Below are positions 5,470-39,116 of a stretch of DNA of 64,000 bases, piece after piece. The stretch spans positions 682,001 through 746,000 of the forward strand of contig NZ_CP010407.1 of the NCBI RefSeq assembly GCF_000830005.1, in the 5' to 3' direction. The position numbers were made by a program, and so were the translations under genes. The notes under the pieces were generated by a model. The model was not told the origin of the DNA, did not search any database, and saw only the letters and a list, made by a program, of their open reading frames with translations. This DNA is from Streptomyces vietnamensis (lineage in GTDB: Bacteria; Actinomycetota; Actinomycetes; Streptomycetales; Streptomycetaceae). Numbering within the stretch: position 1 is the first letter of the stretch; every line of letters starts with the position of its first letter.

Positions 5470-7698
5470 TCACGCCCCCGGCGGGGTCGCCGCCTTCAGG
5501 AGGAGGGCGGCAGCTTCGGCGTCGCGGCCGAGGCGCTCCAGGCAGTGGGCCTCGTCGTCGAGGGCGGCGAGGGTGTCGGGGTGTGCGGGGCCGAGGAGCC
5601 GGGTGCGGGCGGCGGCGATCGCCCGGTGGCACTCCAGCGCCTCCTCCCAGCGGTCGAGCCTGCCGAGGGCGACGGCCGTCTCCCACCGGCTGAGGAGCGT
5701 GTCCGGGTGGTCGGGGCCGAGGACCCGCTCGCGGTCGGCGTGCACGCCCCGGGACTCGGCGAGCGCCTCCGTCCAGCGGCCGAGCCGGCCGAGGTTGACG
5801 GCGAGGGCCTGGCGGGCGCGCAGCGTCTCGGGCCCGTCGGGGCCCTGCGCGCGGGTGCGGGCTGCGACGAGGTCGCGGCAGAGGTCGAGGGCGTCCGCGG
5901 CCTGGCCGAGCCGGCCGAGGCAGACCCCGGTGTCGTAGCGGGCGGCGAGGGTGTCCGGGTGGTCGGGGCCGAGGGCGGCGGCGCGCGCGTCGGCGACCGC
6001 GCGGTACTGGACGAGCGCCTCTTCTCCGCGTCCGAGGCGGGTGAGGGTGAACGCCACCTCGTGGCGGGTCACCAGGGTGTCGGGGTGGTCCTCGCCGAGC
6101 AGCCGGGCCCGGGCCTCCGCGACCTCGTGCGCCGTGCGGTACGACTCCTCCAGGCGGCCGAGGCGGCCGAGCGTGAACGCCAGGTTGTGGCGGCAGCGCA
6201 GGGTGTCGGGGTGGTCGGGGCCGACGGTGCGCTCACGGGCGGCGAGCACCTCGGCGTACACCTGGTACGCCTCGGGGTGCCGGCCGAGGCGGCCCAGCGC
6301 GTAGGCCCGCTCCTGGCGTGCCGCCAGGGTGTCGGGGTGGTCCTCGCCGAGCACGCGGGCGCGGGCCTCGGCGACCTTGCCGAAGACGTGCAGGGCGTCG
6401 GCGGGGCGGTCGAGCCGGGCGAGGGCGAAGCCGACCTCGTACTGGCTGGTGAGGGTGGAGGGGTGGTCCTCGCCGAGGGCCTTCGCGCGGTCCCGGGCGA
6501 CGGACCGGTGCACGGACTCGGCCTCGTCCCAGCGGCCGAGCCGGCCGAGGCCCATGCCGGCCCGGAAGCGGCCGGCGAGCACCGCGACCAGCTCCGCCGG
6601 CGGCGGCGCGGGCGCGGGCGGCGTGCCGTCGGGGGCCGCGGTGGTCCACTCGGTGGTGAGGACGGCCGCGGCGGGATCGTGGGCGGCGGGGCGCGGCCCG
6701 GTGAGGGCGGCCGGGCGGTGCCCGCCGGTCATCCCCCGGATCCACGCGGGCGCGGGGGCCACCGGTTCCTCGGGCAGGGGTACGGGCATGGGCACCGTCA
6801 ACGGCAGCGCGGGTGCCTCGGCGGGCGGCGGGAACGACGGCGCGCCGAAGCGCCCCGAGACGATCCGGCGGCGCAGGTCGCCCGCGTCGGCCGGGCGCTC
6901 CTCGGGGACCTTCGCGAGCAGGTCGACGACGATCCGGTCGAAGTAGTCGGGCAGTTCGGCGCGGAGCGCGCGCGGCGGGGTCGGCACCGTGTCCCGGTGG
7001 CCGATGAGGATGGCCCAGGAGTCGCCGAGGTCGAAGGGCGGGGCGCCGGTGGCCAGCTCGTACAGCACGCACCCCAGGGAGTAGAGGTCGCTGCGGTGGT
7101 CGATCTCGCCACCGCCGCCGATCTGCTCCGGGGACATGTAGTGCGGCGTCCCCATGGCGATGCCGGTCCCGGTGAGCTTGGAGGTGAAGCCCATGTCGGC
7201 GCCGAGGCGCGCTATCCCGAAGTCGCAGATCTTCACCGTGCCGTCGCTCAGCCGCATGATGTTCGCGGGCTTGAGGTCCCGGTGCACGATGCCCTGCCGG
7301 TGCGTGTACGCGAGGGCGTCGGCGACCTGGTCGGCGATCTCGACGACGTCCTGGACGGGCAGCGGGTGCTGGTCGTTGGAGACGAGGAGCTGGCTGAGGT
7401 TGCGCCCCTCCAGGAGCTCCATGACGAGGAAGAGCACGCCCTCGTACTCGCCGAAGTCGTGCACGACGGTGATGCCCCGGTGCTGGAGCGCCGCCGCCAC
7501 CCGGGCCTCGCGGCGGAAGCGCTCGCGCACCACGGCGAGGGCCTGCGGGTCCTGCTGCGGTCCGAGCGGTTTGAGGCACTTCACGGCGACGCCGCGCCCG
7601 AGCGCCTCGTCGGTGGCGCGCCACACCTCGCCCATGCCCCCGCGACCGATGACCTCGTGCAGGCGGTACCGGCCCTGGATCAGTCTGGAGTCCCCCAT
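5470..7698 (-). CDS. Serine/threonine protein kinase fused to TPR-like repeats
   Basis: This protein has 742 residues. Residues 10-270 are a Hanks-type kinase: GRGGMGEVW (18-26), lysine K40, HRDLKPANIM (139-148, catalytic D141) and DFG near 159. A proline- and alanine-rich linker follows. From about 370 to the end there are eight repeats of roughly 42 residues, each containing a version of LGxDHPDTL, the signature of kinesin-light-chain-type TPRs. No transmembrane helix or PASTA domain is seen, so it is probably a soluble scaffolded kinase. Its start lies inside the 3' end of the MpaB-like gene (19-base overlap), implying co-transcription. Substrate unknown. Confidence 0.88.
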   Translation of the reverse strand: MGDSRLIQGRYRLHEVIGRGGMGEVWRATDEALGRGVAVKCLKPLGPQQDPQALAVVRERFRREARVAAALQHRGITVVHDFGEYEGVLFLVMELLEGRNLSQLLVSNDQHPLPVQDVVEIADQVADALAYTHRQGIVHRDLKPANIMRLSDGTVKICDFGIARLGADMGFTSKLTGTGIAMGTPHYMSPEQIGGGGEIDHRSDLYSLGCVLYELATGAPPFDLGDSWAILIGHRDTVPTPPRALRAELPDYFDRIVVDLLAKVPEERPADAGDLRRRIVSGRFGAPSFPPPAEAPALPLTVPMPVPLPEEPVAPAPAWIRGMTGGHRPAALTGPRPAAHDPAAAVLTTEWTTAAPDGTPPAPAPPPAELVAVLAGRFRAGMGLGRLGRWDEAESVHRSVARDRAKALGEDHPSTLTSQYEVGFALARLDRPADALHVFGKVAEARARVLGEDHPDTLAARQERAYALGRLGRHPEAYQVYAEVLAARERTVGPDHPDTLRCRHNLAFTLGRLGRLEESYRTAHEVAEARARLLGEDHPDTLVTRHEVAFTLTRLGRGEEALVQYRAVADARAAALGPDHPDTLAARYDTGVCLGRLGQAADALDLCRDLVAARTRAQGPDGPETLRARQALAVNLGRLGRWTEALAESRGVHADRERVLGPDHPDTLLSRWETAVALGRLDRWEEALECHRAIAAARTRLLGPAHPDTLAALDDEAHCLERLGRDAEAAALLLKAATPPGA

Positions 7699-30305: not shown

Positions 30306-30393
30306 GGGTGCGTCCTCCTCGTTCGGGCCGCTCGCGCGGCGGACGCCCACCTTACCGGCGTCCTCTTCCCGGGCGGCGATCAGCACCGGCGGA

Positions 30394-30399
30394 TAAAAT
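30394..30399 (+). promoter_or_regulatory. TAAAAT -10 box, likely leaderless start of the FHA-ABC gene
   Basis: TAAAAT is a near-consensus -10 hexamer ending 7 bases before the ATG at 30407. Transcription would then begin at or next to the start codon, and no ribosome binding site is present, both consistent with a leaderless mRNA. Confidence 0.5.
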
Positions 30400-30406
30400 T
30401 CGACGC

Positions 30407-33115
30407 ATGGCAGAGCGGCCCGTCGTGCCCGCGGCGCCCGATCTGGTCCTCGAGATCGACGGGGACGCGACGCTCATGAACCCGAGCCGCGTCTATCGCA
30501 TCGGGCGCGACCCCACCAGCGACATCGTGCTCCAGGACGCCCGGGCGTCCTGGCACCACGCGGTGCTCAGCGCCGCCGGCGGCCACTGGACGCTGGTGGA
30601 CGAGGGCAGTACGAACGGCACGTTCGCGGACGGGCTGCGGGTCGTCCGGCCGCGGGAGGTCGGTCCCGGGACGGTCGTACGGTTCGGGCATCCGGCCGAC
30701 GGGCCGCGCGCGGTCCTCCTGACCGGTACCCCGGCCGAGCCGGCGGGGCCCCGTGTCGTACCGGCCGAACCCCGCGTCGTACCGGAGCCGCCCGAGTTCC
30801 GGCCGGAGCCCGCACCGGAACCGCCGCTCGATTCCCGGCCGAAGTCCGCACCGGAGCCGCCGCCCCATTCCCGGCCGGAGCCCGCACCGGAGCCCTGGCC
30901 CGCACCGGAGCCGGAGGACCCCCCGCTGCTGCCGCCCCCGCCACCTCCGGAGGCCGTACGCGACCTCCCGCCCGAGGCCGCCGTCGCGCCCGTACGGGAG
31001 CCGCCGCCCGAGGCCCCGCCGCTCCCCCTGCCGGAACCGTCGGCGGTCGGTCACGGCCGGCCCGTGACGCCGCGGCCCCCCTCCGTCCGGCATCCGGCCG
31101 CGACCGGTACCTTCCGGCAGCCGACGTCCGTGCGGCCGCTGCCCACCCACAGCATCCGGATCGGGCGCGCCCCCGACAACGACGTGGTCGTCGCCGACCT
31201 CGTCGTCTCCCGGCGGCACGCCGAACTCCGCGCCCATCCCGACGGCACCTACTGGATCCACGACCTCGGCAGCCACAACGGCACCTTCCTCAACGGCGCT
31301 CCCGTCGTCGACGCCCGGGTGACGTCGGAGGACATCGTCGGCATCGGCCGGGCCGCGTTCTGTCTGATCGGCGGGCAGCTCGTCGAGTTCACCGACACCG
31401 GCGAGGTGTCCCTCGACGTCCGCTCGCTCGCGGTGACCGTCGACCACGGGCGCAAGACCCTCCTCGACGAGGTGTCGTTCCCGGTGGGCCAGAAGTGCCT
31501 GCTCGCGGTCGTCGGCCCGTCCGGTGCCGGGAAGTCGACGCTCCTGGGCGCGCTCACCGGCCAGCGTCCGGCCGACCGGGGCACGGTGCTCTACGACGGC
31601 CGTGACCTCTACCGGGACTACGCCGAGCTGCGCCAGCGCATCGGGCTCGTCCCGCAGGACGACATCCTGCACCTCCAGCTGACCGTCCGCCGGGCCCTCG
31701 GGTACGCCGCCGAACTCCGCTTCCCCGAGGACACCGTGGCGTCCGAACGGCGGGCCCGGGTCGACGAGGTGATCCGGGAGCTCGGACTCGTGGAGCGCGC
31801 CGAGCAGCCGATCCACAGCCTCTCCGGCGGCCAGCGCAAGCGGGTCAGCGTCGCCCTCGAACTGCTCACGAAGCCCTCCCTGCTCTTCCTCGACGAGCCG
31901 ACCTCGGGTCTCGACCCGGGCATGGACCGCTCCGTGATGCACATGCTGCGCGGGCTCGCGGACGACGGCCGCACGGTCGTCGTGGTCACCCACAGCGTGC
32001 TCAGCCTCGACGTGTGCGACCGGCTGCTCGTGCTCGCGCCGGGCGGCCGGGTCGCGTACTACGGGCCGCCCGCCGACACCCTCGGCTTCTTCGGCTTCGA
32101 GCAGTGGCCGGAGGCCTTCGAGGCCTTCGAGAACGACCGGGACCGCGACTGGGCCGAGCAGTACCGGGCCTCCCGCTTCCACCGCCGGTACGTCGCGGAC
32201 CCGATGGCCCACCCCGACACCCCCGCGCCCGCCGTGCCCGCCGGCGCCCCCGGGCCCGCCGACGGCCGGGCGGCCGCGGAGCCCGGGCCGCCGCCGAAGG
32301 CGCAGAGCTGGGGCTCCCAGCTGCGGACGCTCGTGCGCCGGTACGCGGCGGCGCTCTCCGCCGACCGGACCTTCCTCGCCATCATGATCGCCCTGCCGTT
32401 CGTGATGGGCGCGATGGCCCGGGCCCTGTCCGAGGGCAGCCTCAACCCCGAGTCGACGCTGAACGTGCTGCTCATCCTCTGCGTGGGCGGGGTCCTCACG
32501 GGCGCGGCGAACGCGGTGCGCGAACTGGTCAAGGAGCGCACGATCTACCGGCGCGAGAGAGCCGTCGGCCTGTCCCGCTCCGCCTACCTCGCCTCCAAGG
32601 TGGTGGTCCTCGGACTGATCACGGTCGTGCAGGCGGTGGTCCTGACCCTGGTCGCCCTGATCGGCGTGCCGCTGAACGTGCCCGGCGGCAAGGGCGTCCT
32701 GATGCCGCCGCTCGTGGAGATCACCCTCGCCGTCGCGCTCCTCGCCTTCACGGCGATGATGCTCGGTCTGCTGGTCTCGGCGCTCGTCCGCAAGGAGGAG
32801 GTGACGATGCCGCTGCTCGTCCTCCTCGCGATCGTGCAGGTGGTGTTCTGCGGGGCGCTCCTGAAGGTGCGCGGCACGCCCGTCCTGGAGCAGCTGGCCT
32901 GGCTGGTGCCCTCGCGGTGGGCGTTCGCGGCGATGGGCGCGACGATCGACATCGGGAGGATCGCGCCGAGCGAGAAGACCGCCGATCCGCTGATGCGGCA
33001 CACGGCCGAGGCCTGGCTGTTCGACATGGGCATGATGGTGGTGCTCTGTCTCGTCCTCGCTCTGGCCGTGGCCCGGCTGCTGCGGCGCCACGAGCCGGTC
33101 GTGATGCGGAGGTAG
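30407..33115 (+). CDS. ABC transporter with two FHA domains (Rv1747-like exporter)
   Basis: This 902-residue membrane protein contains FHA1 at 10-100 (GRDPTSDIVL with G33-R34, N70-G71), a proline-rich linker at 110-245 with repeated PEPAPEPP units, and FHA2 at 248-330 (GRAPDNDVVV, SRRH 268-271, N291-G292). The ABC ATPase follows: Walker A GPSGAGKST (370-378), LSGGQRKR (472-479) and Walker B LLFLDEPTSGLD. Six helices of an ABC-2 permease lie from about 640 to 895. This order is that of mycobacterial Rv1747, which its neighbour kinase PknF phosphorylates. Here too a kinase gene lies downstream in the same operon, so FHA-phosphothreonine control of export is likely. The cargo is unknown. Confidence 0.9.
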   Translation: MAERPVVPAAPDLVLEIDGDATLMNPSRVYRIGRDPTSDIVLQDARASWHHAVLSAAGGHWTLVDEGSTNGTFADGLRVVRPREVGPGTVVRFGHPADGPRAVLLTGTPAEPAGPRVVPAEPRVVPEPPEFRPEPAPEPPLDSRPKSAPEPPPHSRPEPAPEPWPAPEPEDPPLLPPPPPPEAVRDLPPEAAVAPVREPPPEAPPLPLPEPSAVGHGRPVTPRPPSVRHPAATGTFRQPTSVRPLPTHSIRIGRAPDNDVVVADLVVSRRHAELRAHPDGTYWIHDLGSHNGTFLNGAPVVDARVTSEDIVGIGRAAFCLIGGQLVEFTDTGEVSLDVRSLAVTVDHGRKTLLDEVSFPVGQKCLLAVVGPSGAGKSTLLGALTGQRPADRGTVLYDGRDLYRDYAELRQRIGLVPQDDILHLQLTVRRALGYAAELRFPEDTVASERRARVDEVIRELGLVERAEQPIHSLSGGQRKRVSVALELLTKPSLLFLDEPTSGLDPGMDRSVMHMLRGLADDGRTVVVVTHSVLSLDVCDRLLVLAPGGRVAYYGPPADTLGFFGFEQWPEAFEAFENDRDRDWAEQYRASRFHRRYVADPMAHPDTPAPAVPAGAPGPADGRAAAEPGPPPKAQSWGSQLRTLVRRYAAALSADRTFLAIMIALPFVMGAMARALSEGSLNPESTLNVLLILCVGGVLTGAANAVRELVKERTIYRRERAVGLSRSAYLASKVVVLGLITVVQAVVLTLVALIGVPLNVPGGKGVLMPPLVEITLAVALLAFTAMMLGLLVSALVRKEEVTMPLLVLLAIVQVVFCGALLKVRGTPVLEQLAWLVPSRWAFAAMGATIDIGRIAPSEKTADPLMRHTAEAWLFDMGMMVVLCLVLALAVARLLRRHEPVVMRR

Positions 33116-33119
33116 GTCT

Positions 33120-33212
33120 GTGTGCATCCGCGTGACGGAGGTGGTGGGACCGTGAGCGTCCCCGTGACGGAGGTGGTGGGGCCGTGAGCGTCCCTGTGAG
33201 GGAGGTGAGGCC
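33120..33212 (+). repeat. Three tandem GTGA-coupled mini-ORFs copied from the next gene's start
   Basis: Three adjacent units of about 29-32 bases each contain GGAGGTG and a GTG start. From 33120, 33152 and 33184 they encode VCIRVTEVVGP, VSVPVTEVVGP and VSVPVREVRP. Each stop TGA overlaps the next GTG as GTGA, the last one being the real start at 33213, whose product also begins VSVPV. The array thus duplicates the ribosome binding site and first five codons of the SH3-like gene. It may tune its translation or chain it to the ABC gene. Confidence 0.8.
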
Positions 33213-33857
33213 GTGAGCGTCCCCGTGTCCGAGTACGACGTGCCGGACTTCCGACCCACCCATGTGGTGCCCCGCTCCGGGCTCTCCGCCTGGGAGGCGC
33301 CCGATCCCGAGCTGCCCACGACGCCCCTCGACGCCTTCCTGCCCGTACGGCTCGTGGAGCGGACCGGCGACTGGGGGCGGGTGCTGTGCTCGAACGGCTG
33401 GACCGCGTGGGTCGACGCCCGCCTGCTCGTGAGCGTGCCGGACGACCCTCCGGCGGCGGGCCGGCCGCTGACCAGGACCGCCGATCCCCGGCCGCTCATC
33501 GCCCGCGCCGAGGACGCGCTCGGCCGCTACCGGCGGGCGGCGGAGGAGCTGGGCGCGGGCCGGCTCGACGGCGAGGGCTTCCGGCTGCGGACCCGCGGCC
33601 TGCGGGTCGGCATGGTCGTCGACGGCGAGTCGGTCTGGCTGTACGACGCGGAGCACGAGCGCTGGGTGTACTGCGACGGTGTCGGGCTCAGTACGTACGC
33701 GGCGTCGGCGGCGCCCTCGGCCGAACCCGTCCAGGAGCCCGAGGAGCCGGGACACGAACCGACGCAGGTGGTGCCCCAGGTGGATCCGGCGGTGGCGGCC
33801 GGGCCGCCGCCGACGCAGGTCGTGGGACCGACCGGACCGGCGGGTGAGGGCCGATGA
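33213..33857 (+). CDS. SH3-like protein with C-terminal TQVV motifs
   Basis: This is a 214-residue soluble protein. Residues 13-76 look like a small SH3 barrel (VPRSGLSAWEAPD, FLPVRLVERTGDWGRVLCSNGWTAWVDARLL). Residues 88-165 are a second compact region ending WLYDAEHERWVYCDGVGL. The acidic, proline-rich tail holds two TQVV motifs (184-187, 201-204), and THVV is at 16-19. Threonine with an aliphatic residue at +3 is a classic FHA-binding pattern once phosphorylated. Its stop overlaps the kinase ATG (ATGA). It is probably an adaptor or substrate of the kinase; not a recognised named family. Confidence 0.75.
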   Translation: MSVPVSEYDVPDFRPTHVVPRSGLSAWEAPDPELPTTPLDAFLPVRLVERTGDWGRVLCSNGWTAWVDARLLVSVPDDPPAAGRPLTRTADPRPLIARAEDALGRYRRAAEELGAGRLDGEGFRLRTRGLRVGMVVDGESVWLYDAEHERWVYCDGVGLSTYAASAAPSAEPVQEPEEPGHEPTQVVPQVDPAVAAGPPPTQVVGPTGPAGEGR

Positions 33858-34846
33858 CGGCCGTCGGGGCGCACGGGGACGCGGAGATCCCGGCGGGCCG
33901 GCCCTCTGGACTGCTCGGCAAGGAGATCGCGGGCTACCGCGTGGAGAGCGAGATCGGGCGCGGTGGCATGGCGGTCGTGTACCGGGCCAGGGACCTGCGT
34001 CTCGACCGTACGGTGGCGCTGAAGCTCCTTGCGCCCGAGCTGGCCCGCAACGACACCTTCCGCAAGCGCTTCGCACACGAGTCGCGGGTCGCCGCCTCGA
34101 TCGACCACCCGCACATCGTGCCGGTCTTCGAGGCGGGCGAGACGGAGGGCGTCCTCTACATCGCGATGCGGTACGTGGCGGGGCGGGACCTGGCGGCCCT
34201 CCTCGACCGCGAGGGGCCGCTGCCGCCGGTGAAGGCGGGCCGGATCGCGGCGCAGGTGGCCTCGGCCCTGGACGCGGCGCACGCGCACGACCTGGTGCAC
34301 CGCGACGTGAAGCCCGGCAACGTCCTGGTCGCCGAGGGCACCGACGGCGACCACCCGGAGCACGTGTACCTGACCGACTTCGGCCTGACGAAGAAATCTC
34401 TCTCGCTGACGGGCTTCACGACGGTGGGCGAGTTCGTCGGAACCCTCGACTACGTGGCGCCGGAGCAGATCTCGGGCAAGCCGGTGGACGGCCGGTGCGA
34501 TGTGTACAGCCTGGCGTGCGTGGTCTTCGAGACCCTGGTGGGGGCGCCGCCGTTCCGCCGCGACAACGACTGGGCGGTGCTGTGGGCGCAGCAGTACGAT
34601 CCGCCGCCGCCGCTCTCGGAGGTGCGGCCGGGGCTGCCGTCGGCGGCGGACGCGGTGTTCGCGCGGGCGCTGGCGAAGACGCCCGAGGAGCGGTACGGGA
34701 CGTGCCTGGAGTTCGTCGCCGAACTGCGCGCCGTCCTGGCGGACGCGCCCGGCGGCGGTCCGGCGGCGCCCAGGGGCCCGCGACGGCTCGGCGCGCCGCC
34801 CGCCCCGCCCGCGTGGGCGCGACCGGTCTTCCGGGAGCTGGACTAG
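33854..34846 (+). CDS. Soluble PknB-type serine/threonine kinase
   Basis: This is a 330-residue protein. The kinase core spans 27-290: GRGGMAVVYRA (35-45), K57, HRDVKPGNVL (149-158, D151), DFG (175-177), activation-loop threonines at 189-190, and GTLDYVAPEQ from 196. The tail is a short proline-rich segment without a transmembrane helix or PASTA repeats, unlike PknB and PknF. Overlap with the SH3-like gene by ATGA gives translational coupling. By analogy with PknF and Rv1747 the likely targets are the double-FHA ABC exporter and the SH3-like protein. That relationship is inferred from position and motifs. Confidence 0.9.
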   Translation: MTAVGAHGDAEIPAGRPSGLLGKEIAGYRVESEIGRGGMAVVYRARDLRLDRTVALKLLAPELARNDTFRKRFAHESRVAASIDHPHIVPVFEAGETEGVLYIAMRYVAGRDLAALLDREGPLPPVKAGRIAAQVASALDAAHAHDLVHRDVKPGNVLVAEGTDGDHPEHVYLTDFGLTKKSLSLTGFTTVGEFVGTLDYVAPEQISGKPVDGRCDVYSLACVVFETLVGAPPFRRDNDWAVLWAQQYDPPPPLSEVRPGLPSAADAVFARALAKTPEERYGTCLEFVAELRAVLADAPGGGPAAPRGPRRLGAPPAPPAWARPVFRELD

Positions 34847-37451: not shown

Positions 37452-37535
37452 GCTAGTACCGGGGCCGGTGCTCCGCTTGCGGACGGACGCCGTTCGGCGC
37501 ACACAATGGGCGCGGAACGGAAGAAAGGGAAAAAC

Positions 37536-39116
37536 ATGACTTCCCATCCGCCGTCCGGCCCTCCGTCGGTTCCCCCCACAGGTCCCCCCTCGGGCCCCCT
37601 CTCGGGTCCGGGCACAACACGCCCGGGAAGCGGCGGCCCCCCGCCACCGCCCGGACCGCCCCGCGGCGGTTCGGGGGGTGGCGGTTCGTCCGGCGGCGGT
37701 GCCTCCGGAAGCGGCGGTGCCTCCGGAGGCGGCGGCGGTTCCGGGCCGACCGGCGGCGGAGGCGGGGCGACCGGCGGCGGAGGCGGGGCGACCGGCGGCG
37801 GAGGCGGGGCGACCGGTGGCGGAGGCGGCTCGCCCGGCGGCGGAGGCAAGGGCGGTGGCCGTCCCTGGTGGCGTTCCGTACCGAAGGTCGCCTCGGTCAC
37901 CGCCGTGCTCGTGGCGGCCGCGGCGCTGGCCGTCGTCCTCACCAACCGCCCCGACGGCAAGAACGACACGGCGGGATCCGGCGGCGAGGTCTTCCTGCAG
38001 AACGCCGCCGCGTCCGGCCCGGACCCGTTCACGCGGTCGACGGCACGCGCCGGCGACGGCTCCGCCCCGCCGCCCTCGCTGCCGCCCCGTACCGCCTCGG
38101 CCGTGCCCGAGATGTCGGGGTCGACGCCCGGCCTCTACGGCGGGACCCGGTCGGTCTCCAGCTGCGACGTCGAGCAGCAGGTCCGGTACCTCTCCGGCGA
38201 GCCCGCGAAGAACGCGGCCTTCGCCTCGGTCGTCGGCATCTCGCCGAACGACGTGCCGGACTACCTCCGCTCCCTGACCCCGCTTCAGCTCCGGGTCGAC
38301 ACCCGGGTGACGAACCACGGCTTCCGCAACGGCGCGGCCACCACCTACCAGGCGGTGCTCCAGGCCGGCACGGCGGTCATGGTCGACGGTCACGGAGTAC
38401 CCCGGGTGCGCTGCGCCTGCGGAAATCCGCTGACCGGCCCGGTGGCGCAGAAGGCGCCGCGCACGACGGGCGCGCCATGGCAGGGGTACAGCTCCCAGCA
38501 GGTCGTCGTGGTGGCGCCGTCGGTGACGGTCGTGAACGTCTTCGTCGTGTACGACCCCCAGGACGACGGCTGGTTCGCGCGGAAGCACGGCGACACCGGC
38601 GAGCACGACAGGCCGACCCCGCCGCCTCCCCCGCCGCCGACGATCCCTCCGTCCACGCTGCTGTCGCCCTCGCCGTCCACGCCCAGCCCTTCCCCGTCGT
38701 CGCCGGTGCCGTGCGTGACGGTGACGGGCACGGAGACCCCGACGCCGATCGACGGGGTCACCCCGTCGCCGTGCCCCTCGACGCTCTCCCCCTCGGCGTC
38801 GACGTCGTCACCGGAGTCGCCGTCCGACTCCTCCGGCCCCACGGACTCGTCGCCGTCGACGGAGTCGTCGAGCCCGGAGTCGGCACCCGCGTCGGACGGT
38901 TCGGCGGATCTCACGAGCCGGTCGCCGAACCAGCAGGCAGAACAGCAGGCGGACCAGCCTGCGGCGGCCGTCTCCCCGGCCGCGTCGCTCTCCTCGCTGT
39001 CGGCTCGGGTCCCGTCGGGTTCGGTGTCGAGTTCCGTGTCGGGTTCGGCGTCACGTTCGGTCTCGGGTTCGGCGTCCGCTCCGGCGCCCGGTCCGGGGTC
39101 CGTACCCGTCCTCTGA
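37536..39116 (+). CDS. DUF6777-type membrane-anchored protein with Gly-rich and Ser/Pro-rich tails
   Basis: This is a 526-residue protein. Residues 1-110 are low complexity (Pro, Gly); 37749-37832 is a perfect-to-near-perfect 21-bp tandem repeat of four copies encoding TGGGGGA units. A single helix follows (VASVTAVLVAAAALAVVLTN, about 120-139). The folded core runs from about 150 to 355 (EVFLQNAAASGPDPFT, CDVEQQVRYLSGEPAKNAAFASVVG, CACGNPLTGP) and fits the DUF6777 family. The last 170 residues are Ser/Pro/Thr repeats. It is probably anchored with the core outside the cell. Function unknown. Confidence 0.75.
   Translation: MTSHPPSGPPSVPPTGPPSGPLSGPGTTRPGSGGPPPPPGPPRGGSGGGGSSGGGASGSGGASGGGGGSGPTGGGGGATGGGGGATGGGGGATGGGGGSPGGGGKGGGRPWWRSVPKVASVTAVLVAAAALAVVLTNRPDGKNDTAGSGGEVFLQNAAASGPDPFTRSTARAGDGSAPPPSLPPRTASAVPEMSGSTPGLYGGTRSVSSCDVEQQVRYLSGEPAKNAAFASVVGISPNDVPDYLRSLTPLQLRVDTRVTNHGFRNGAATTYQAVLQAGTAVMVDGHGVPRVRCACGNPLTGPVAQKAPRTTGAPWQGYSSQQVVVVAPSVTVVNVFVVYDPQDDGWFARKHGDTGEHDRPTPPPPPPPTIPPSTLLSPSPSTPSPSPSSPVPCVTVTGTETPTPIDGVTPSPCPSTLSPSASTSSPESPSDSSGPTDSSPSTESSSPESAPASDGSADLTSRSPNQQAEQQADQPAAAVSPAASLSSLSARVPSGSVSSSVSGSASRSVSGSASAPAPGPGSVPVL

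What the first reader, a model, noticed from the sequence alone, without database searches (positions are those of the whole stretch)
33120..33215. Translation start duplicated into three GTGA-chained mini-ORFs
Between the FHA-ABC gene and the SH3-like gene, three consecutive units each carry a GGAGGTG site and a GTG start encoding V-S-V-P-V-like peptides of 10-11 residues. Each ends in TGA overlapping the next GTG, and the fourth start is the real gene. This looks like tandem amplification of a ribosome binding site plus first codons, kept in frame to chain ribosomes. It could act as a translational rheostat or a phase-variable element whose copy number changes by slippage.
Basis: seen in the sequence. 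Interest (0 to 1): 0.8.

Follow-up and report, generated by a model that had tools for sequence, protein, structure and literature searches.

The report
Chained mini-genes bridging two bacterial genes
In this Streptomyces genome the start of a gene has been copied into three tiny reading frames whose stop codons each overlap the next start, probably handing ribosomes from one gene to the next, and relatives suggest that insertions into such tight gene junctions usually keep that hand-over unbroken.

Summary
In detail: three mini-ORFs (33120-33155, 33152-33187, 33184-33216), each preceded by GGAGG and ending in a TGA that overlaps the next GTG; the fourth GTG (33213) starts the SH3-like gene. 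Spacings are 32, 32 and 29 nt, all 2 mod 3, so the frame shifts at each step.

Relatives show its origin. Compact junctions have the upstream stop 3-12 nt before the start. In a 29-row clade 12 junctions carry inserts resembling copies of the junction; 11 keep an unbroken chain of mini-ORFs ending TGA on the gene's GTGA, at varied lengths and with unconserved peptides. Two other junctions repeat the pattern: 4 of 4 inserts (one by reading) and 3 of 3 usable inserts, one with two tandem mini-ORFs.

Best reading: relay mini-cistrons. Start-spanning duplications are retained when they preserve stop-start coupling; translation matters, not the peptide. It works like engineered bicistronic designs and mycobacterial MIRUs, but arises by local duplication. 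Phase variation is unsupported; a rheostat effect is untested. Relays are not obligatory: 23 of 104 rows, all outside the clade, have spacers of 18 nt or more without one.

The parts
30308..33115 (+). upstream gene: FHA-ABC transporter ORF, stop TAG 33113-33115
   Evidence: FHA, ABC_tran, ABC2_membrane
33108..33112 (+). GGAGG inside the last ABC codons; in compact relatives the SD of the SH3-like gene, here of mini-ORF 1
33120..33155 (+). mini-ORF 1, VCIRVTEVVGP*, TGA overlaps GTG33152
33152..33187 (+). mini-ORF 2, VSVPVTEVVGP*, SD 33137-33141, TGA overlaps GTG33184
33184..33216 (+). mini-ORF 3, VSVPVREVRP*, SD 33169-33173, TGA overlaps GTG33213
33201..33205 (+). GGAGG for the SH3-like gene, inside mini-ORF 3
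33213..33857 (+). downstream gene, SH3-like protein, 214 aa
   Evidence: SH3_4 below cut-off in 13 of 20 homologues
33854..34846 (+). Ser/Thr kinase gene; ATG overlaps the SH3-like stop by 4 nt (third junction studied)

Best explanation
Relay mini-cistrons made by tandem duplication of a coupled gene start. Ancestrally the ABC stop lay a few nt before the SH3-like start, with the SD inside the last ABC codons. A duplication spanning SD and start left the old start serving a mini-ORF and the new copy serving the gene. Because the start reads GTGA, a copy whose length is 2 mod 3 makes the mini-ORF end in TGA on the next start. A ribosome leaving the ABC gene, or recruited at its SD, translates mini-ORFs 1 to 3 and re-initiates at each GTGA, or each mini-ORF opens the folded start region for the next, so coupling into the SH3-like gene is kept. 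Shown: anatomy, resemblance to the compact junction, frame preservation across species, recurrence at two more junctions. Inferred: that the mini-ORFs are translated, and that selection on coupling keeps them. The peptides themselves probably do nothing.
For: Anatomy. In the 29-row clade 17 junctions are compact (3-12 nt) and 12 carry inserts; 10 have one mini-ORF ending +4 on the start, the window has a chain of three, L043 fails. Duplicating every segment spanning SD and start of a compact junction gives +4 in only 55 of 373 cases, -3 in 126. Second junction (sigma-like gene to 83-aa gene): 33 distinct junctions, 29 directly overlapping (28 by script, L296 by reading), 4 with inserts of 47, 167, 32 and 56 nt, all relays. 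Third junction (SH3-like to kinase): 95 distinct, 4 with inserts of 30 nt or more, 1 dropped as misassembled, 3 of 3 relays, L019 with two tandem mini-ORFs. My reading of events: 15 of 16 fit, binomial tail 7.7e-7 at 1/3 each; without the window and L218, 13 of 14, about 6e-6 by hand. A uORF with AUGA overlap is experimentally required for PPE2 expression in a mycobacterial reporter (PMC11260477, passages).
Against: No expression or ribosome data. 24 of 35 rows with spacers of 18 nt or more have no relay: L043 and 23 rows outside the clade. L043 keeps units but its ORF stops 13 nt before the start. Predicted start accessibility does not differ between inserted and compact rows (0.37 against 0.33). 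In L003 and L036 an alternative GTG gives an ORF ending 4 nt before the start. Event counts and the clade were chosen by me after seeing the data; L338 rests on weak homology (A 59%, B 43%).
Confidence: 0.68

Rival explanations
1. Neutral tandem-duplication debris. The junction is prone to duplication, the last SD-start copy serves the gene, and the mini-ORFs are tolerated by-products, helped by the scarcity of stop codons in GC-rich DNA.
For: Spacers without relays are common outside the clade (23 rows). Peptides are not conserved. Open frames are easily had: shuffled insert open in 54% for the 56-codon L295 and 96% for L218.
Against: Frame: 11 of 12, 4 of 4 and 3 of 3 inserts end exactly on the next start, against about one third expected; ending at the inherited TAG (-3) is the commonest simulated outcome (126 of 373), yet none of the 12 first mini-ORFs ends there.
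Confidence: 0.22
2. Phase-variable or tunable switch: unit number changes by slippage and sets expression level.
For: Unit number differs between species, from none to three.
Against: Copies have diverged (28 of 32 between copies 1 and 2, copy 3 shorter); gaining or losing a unit leaves the gene's own frame intact, so no on/off change; no within-species data.
Confidence: 0.05
3. Regulatory leader peptide or attenuator: the mini-ORF peptides sense an amino acid, drug or translation stress.
For: Some bacterial uORFs do so (search listings and abstracts only).
Against: Sequence and length vary between relatives (VSFPAVEVRP, MAPVPEVSA, MSAVLGGPVAEVSA and others); the recurring E-V pair follows from the SD GGAGGTG read in that frame.
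Confidence: 0.05

Closest known systems
Bicistronic design (BCD) fore-cistrons (PMC10367133, passages)
   Same: Short leader ORF holding the SD of the next gene; stop overlaps the next start; translation said to open the start region.
   Different: Engineered, one fore-cistron, TAATG overlap; here natural, GTGA overlap, up to three in series and made of copies of the gene's own start.
Mycobacterial interspersed repetitive units, MIRUs (review PMC12548453, passages)
   Same: A short ORF inserted at a start codon and coupled to the gene with -4 nt spacing.
   Different: MIRUs are repeats found in many mycobacteria and appear mobile; here the unit is a local copy of the junction and was found nowhere else in the genome.
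Termination-reinitiation uORF with NUGA overlap, M. tuberculosis uPPE2-PPE2 (PMC11260477, passages)
   Same: Out-of-frame uORF whose stop overlaps the start; downstream expression depends on it.
   Different: PPE2 lacks an SD and sits behind a riboswitch; here each start has an SD and the array lies between two genes.
Leader genes proposed to raise expression by reinitiation (Korolev 2016, PMC4833913; abstract and first part of Findings)
   Same: Short ORF ending close to the structural gene, abundant in Actinobacteria.
   Different: Those predictions exclude overlap and peak at 10-11 bp; here the overlap is 4 nt.

Membership tests
Bicistronic design / leader-cistron coupling | Short ORF containing the SD of the next start | tested here: met
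   GGAGG 33137, 33169, 33201 inside mini-ORFs 1, 2, 3
Bicistronic design / leader-cistron coupling | Stop overlaps the next start | tested here: met
   GTGA at 33152, 33184, 33213
Bicistronic design / leader-cistron coupling | Translation of the leader is needed for full expression | not testable with these tools
   needs reporters
Termination-reinitiation uORF | Ribosomes terminate and re-initiate at the overlap | not testable with these tools
   needs tagged reporters or ribosome profiling
MIRU | ORF coupled to the gene at -4 nt | tested here: met
MIRU | Repeat dispersed in the genome | tested here: not met
   own-genome search with the junction found only itself and a 48-base match to the ABC coding part
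Phase-variable repeat | Near-identical copies | tested here: not met
   28 of 32 between copies 1 and 2; copy 3 shorter
Phase-variable repeat | Unit number varies within a species | not tested
   one genome per species was held
Attenuating leader peptide | Conserved peptide or regulatory codons | tested here: not met
   peptides differ between relatives in sequence and length

The most novel reading that the evidence does not exclude
A general relay rule in Streptomyces: compact stop-start junctions grow by tandem duplication of the start, and selection keeps almost only insertions that form an unbroken chain of stop/start-overlapping mini-cistrons. Ribosomes would be handed across relays of about 7 to 56 codons, and new small ORFs would be born this way throughout the genus.
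Probability: 0.4. Interest if true: 0.75.

Novelty: new variant of a known kind. Interest (0 to 1): 0.58.

Why it matters
If the relay rule holds, insertions at gene junctions read out selection for translational coupling without an experiment, show one way bacterial mini-ORFs arise, and supply natural multi-step bicistronic cassettes. How far a re-initiating ribosome can be passed along becomes testable with reporters of zero to three units.

Tried and rejected
The first junction listing left minus-strand loci unreversed; it was redone with orientation. A second genus search drew essentially the same genomes and its loci were not added to the junction set. Folding did not separate inserted from compact junctions. 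An ungapped start-duplication score ranked other starts as high as the window; those I printed showed no relay, apart from L176. The own-genome case L176 (minus strand, near 5834) looks relay-like by my reading, but the one relative read, L309, gave no usable comparison; not counted. L095 was dropped from junction 3 (inverted kinase piece and an N). In one search the script gave no start for L296 and named the first of two adjacent GTGs in L307; both were settled by reading frames and the start of relative L326. MIRU membership rejected because the unit is not dispersed. Paper searches: 15, 16, 24, 39, 40, 41, 42, 68; of these 39, 41 and 68 were aimed at tandem start-derived mini-ORFs and their listings showed none by title or abstract start (the library lacks most subscription journals). 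BCD, MIRU and NUGA coupling were recalled first and then checked.

Full report
What is there. The ABC gene ends at TAG 33113-33115. Three ORFs follow, GTG33120-TGA33155, GTG33152-TGA33187 and GTG33184-TGA33216, of 11, 11 and 10 residues, and the SH3-like gene starts at GTG33213. GGAGG lies 7, 10, 10 and 7 nt before the four starts. The units are 32, 32 and 29 nt long; each is 2 mod 3, so each step changes frame and TGA falls on the next GTGA. The SH3-like and kinase genes overlap ATGA at 33854. The host is a Streptomyces, inferred from the titles of close relatives.

Gene identities. The upstream protein has FHA, ABC_tran and ABC2_membrane domains and the third gene is a protein kinase. The middle protein has no Pfam or NCBIfam match at E 0.001; bacterial SH3_4 appears below its cut-off in 13 of 20 homologues, best E 0.0042. 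The name SH3-like is provisional.

Relatives at the first junction. The middle protein has homologues in 104 of 199 genus genomes searched. Loci came from there (30), from named genomes (best 80 of 134), from the own genome (2) and from a DNA search of 392 genomes (30): 142 loci, of which L032 lacks the gene, giving 108 distinct junctions. A start was assigned by script in 104 (none for L071, L073, L075, L111). A tree of 53 rows (77% identity or more in the SH3-like protein) has a 29-row clade (support 96/94): 17 rows with the ABC stop 3-12 nt before the start and 12 with inserts. The inserts resemble the compact junction (ABC tail with SD, then start codons), so I read them as copies. In 10 of the 12 one mini-ORF runs from 3-4 nt after the ABC stop to TGA on the gene's GTGA, at start-to-start distances of 20 to 80 nt; the window does it through three; L043 fails, with a degenerate array whose ORF stops 13 nt before the start. 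L114 holds two units fused into one 20-residue ORF. All eight rows of the window's own subclade (100/99) have relays. Over the 104 rows, 69 have spacers under 18 nt and 35 longer; of the 35, 11 have relays and 24 do not (L043 and 23 rows outside the clade).

Is the frame more than luck? Duplicating every segment of 15-45 nt spanning SD and start of a compact junction gives the +4 ending in 55 of 373 cases, -3 (the inherited TAG) in 126, running on in 119, -14 in 67. None of the 12 first mini-ORFs ends at -3, though in L003 and L036 an alternative GTG gives an ORF ending at -4. By my reading of the tree there are ten length-setting events here and nine fit.

A second junction. Tandem-repeat scanning of 1.66 Mb of the genome found another array over a gene start, between a sigma-70 region 4 protein and an 83-residue gene (L218). 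In 36 relatives queried by handle the genes mostly overlap by 4 nt. The 37 loci examined (1 without match, 3 repeats) gave 33 distinct junctions: 28 direct by script, L296 direct by reading its frames, 4 with inserts: own (47 nt, VSRRTAAVRSRPEAAA*), L295 (167 nt, 56 residues), L307 (32 nt, MTDRDEGAAAW*), L338 (56 nt, VSGERRGRKPEGGKGRGGT*). All four start on the upstream stop and end on the gene's start. For L307 the start overlapped is the second of two adjacent GTGs, the one relative L326 uses. L338 rests on weak homology.

A third junction. SH3-like to kinase: 95 distinct junctions; 49 overlap by 1 nt (TGATG), 23 by 4, 3 by 11, 15 lie 6 nt apart, 1 lies 3 apart, and 4 have inserts of 30 nt or more. 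L095 was dropped as a likely misassembly. L017 and L025 have one 11-residue mini-ORF and L019 two in tandem, each joined by TGATG. The same thing thus happens with another overlap type.

Strength. 15 of 16 events fit; at 1/3 each the tail is 7.7e-7. Leaving out the window and L218, through which the pattern was found, 13 of 14 fit (about 6e-6, by hand). Event counts are my reading: L054 and L058 were taken as one gain, and L017, L019 and L025 as one gain plus one duplication. The rule was framed on the first junction; the other two were looked at afterwards.

How common. In 1.66 Mb, 8 of 416 NTGA starts (1194 starts examined, crude gene calling) had an upstream mini-ORF with an SD, several only 3-5 codons long. 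A scan of 2.46 Mb for duplicated starts with an SD at both gave 12 pairs, of which the window (4 pairs) and L176 (2 pairs, by my reading) are relay-like; L218 is not among them, probably because its upstream copy lacks a canonical SD.

Mechanism. Start regions are strongly folded (mean -24.7 kcal/mol in 14 compact rows, -26.7 in 12 inserted rows, -32.1 in the window), which fits re-initiation or unfolding by the ribosome on the preceding ORF; these data cannot tell them apart. Both models are set out in the review PMC12548453 (passages).

Novelty. Short leader cistrons that deliver ribosomes, MIRUs and engineered fore-cistrons are known. A serial relay made from copies of the gene's own start, recurring at several junctions and kept in phase across species, was not seen in the paper listings. 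I call it a new variant of a known kind.

Noticed in passing
L218 3496-3560 (-), L295, L307, L338: Second relay locus: inserts of 47, 167, 32 and 56 nt between a sigma-like gene and an 83-aa gene, all forming stop/start-overlapping mini-ORFs.
   Followed up: yes
L019, L017, L025 (SH3-like to kinase junction): Mini-ORFs joined by TGATG; L019 has two in tandem.
   Followed up: yes
L176 near 5834 (-): Duplicated GCGTGACCGTGA at the start of a gene; a 10-residue ORF appears to end TGA on its GTGA.
   Followed up: partly
L179 15937-16019: 22-nt tandem array (3.9 copies) overlapping a crudely called gene start; no relay read.
   Followed up: no
L060, L047, L062, L064, L066 (5' end of the SH3-like gene): Repeated GGATCC-containing segments around the N-terminal codons in the TGA-stop lineage.
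   Followed up: no
L071 and L078 (first junction): Short duplications of the ABC tail or SD region without a copied start.
   Followed up: no
window 30787-30894 and 37681-37860: Two other strong tandem arrays, inside long ORFs (36-nt units in the FHA-ABC ORF; repeats in the gene at 37506).
   Followed up: no
L061: Record titled Microtetraspora glauca has the same junction as L010, a genome listed as same genus as the window; the title may be wrong.
   Followed up: no
L095: Locus with an N and an inverted piece of the kinase gene; probable misassembly.
   Followed up: partly
L296: Upstream sigma-like ORF appears frameshifted relative to relatives ahead of the second junction.
   Followed up: no
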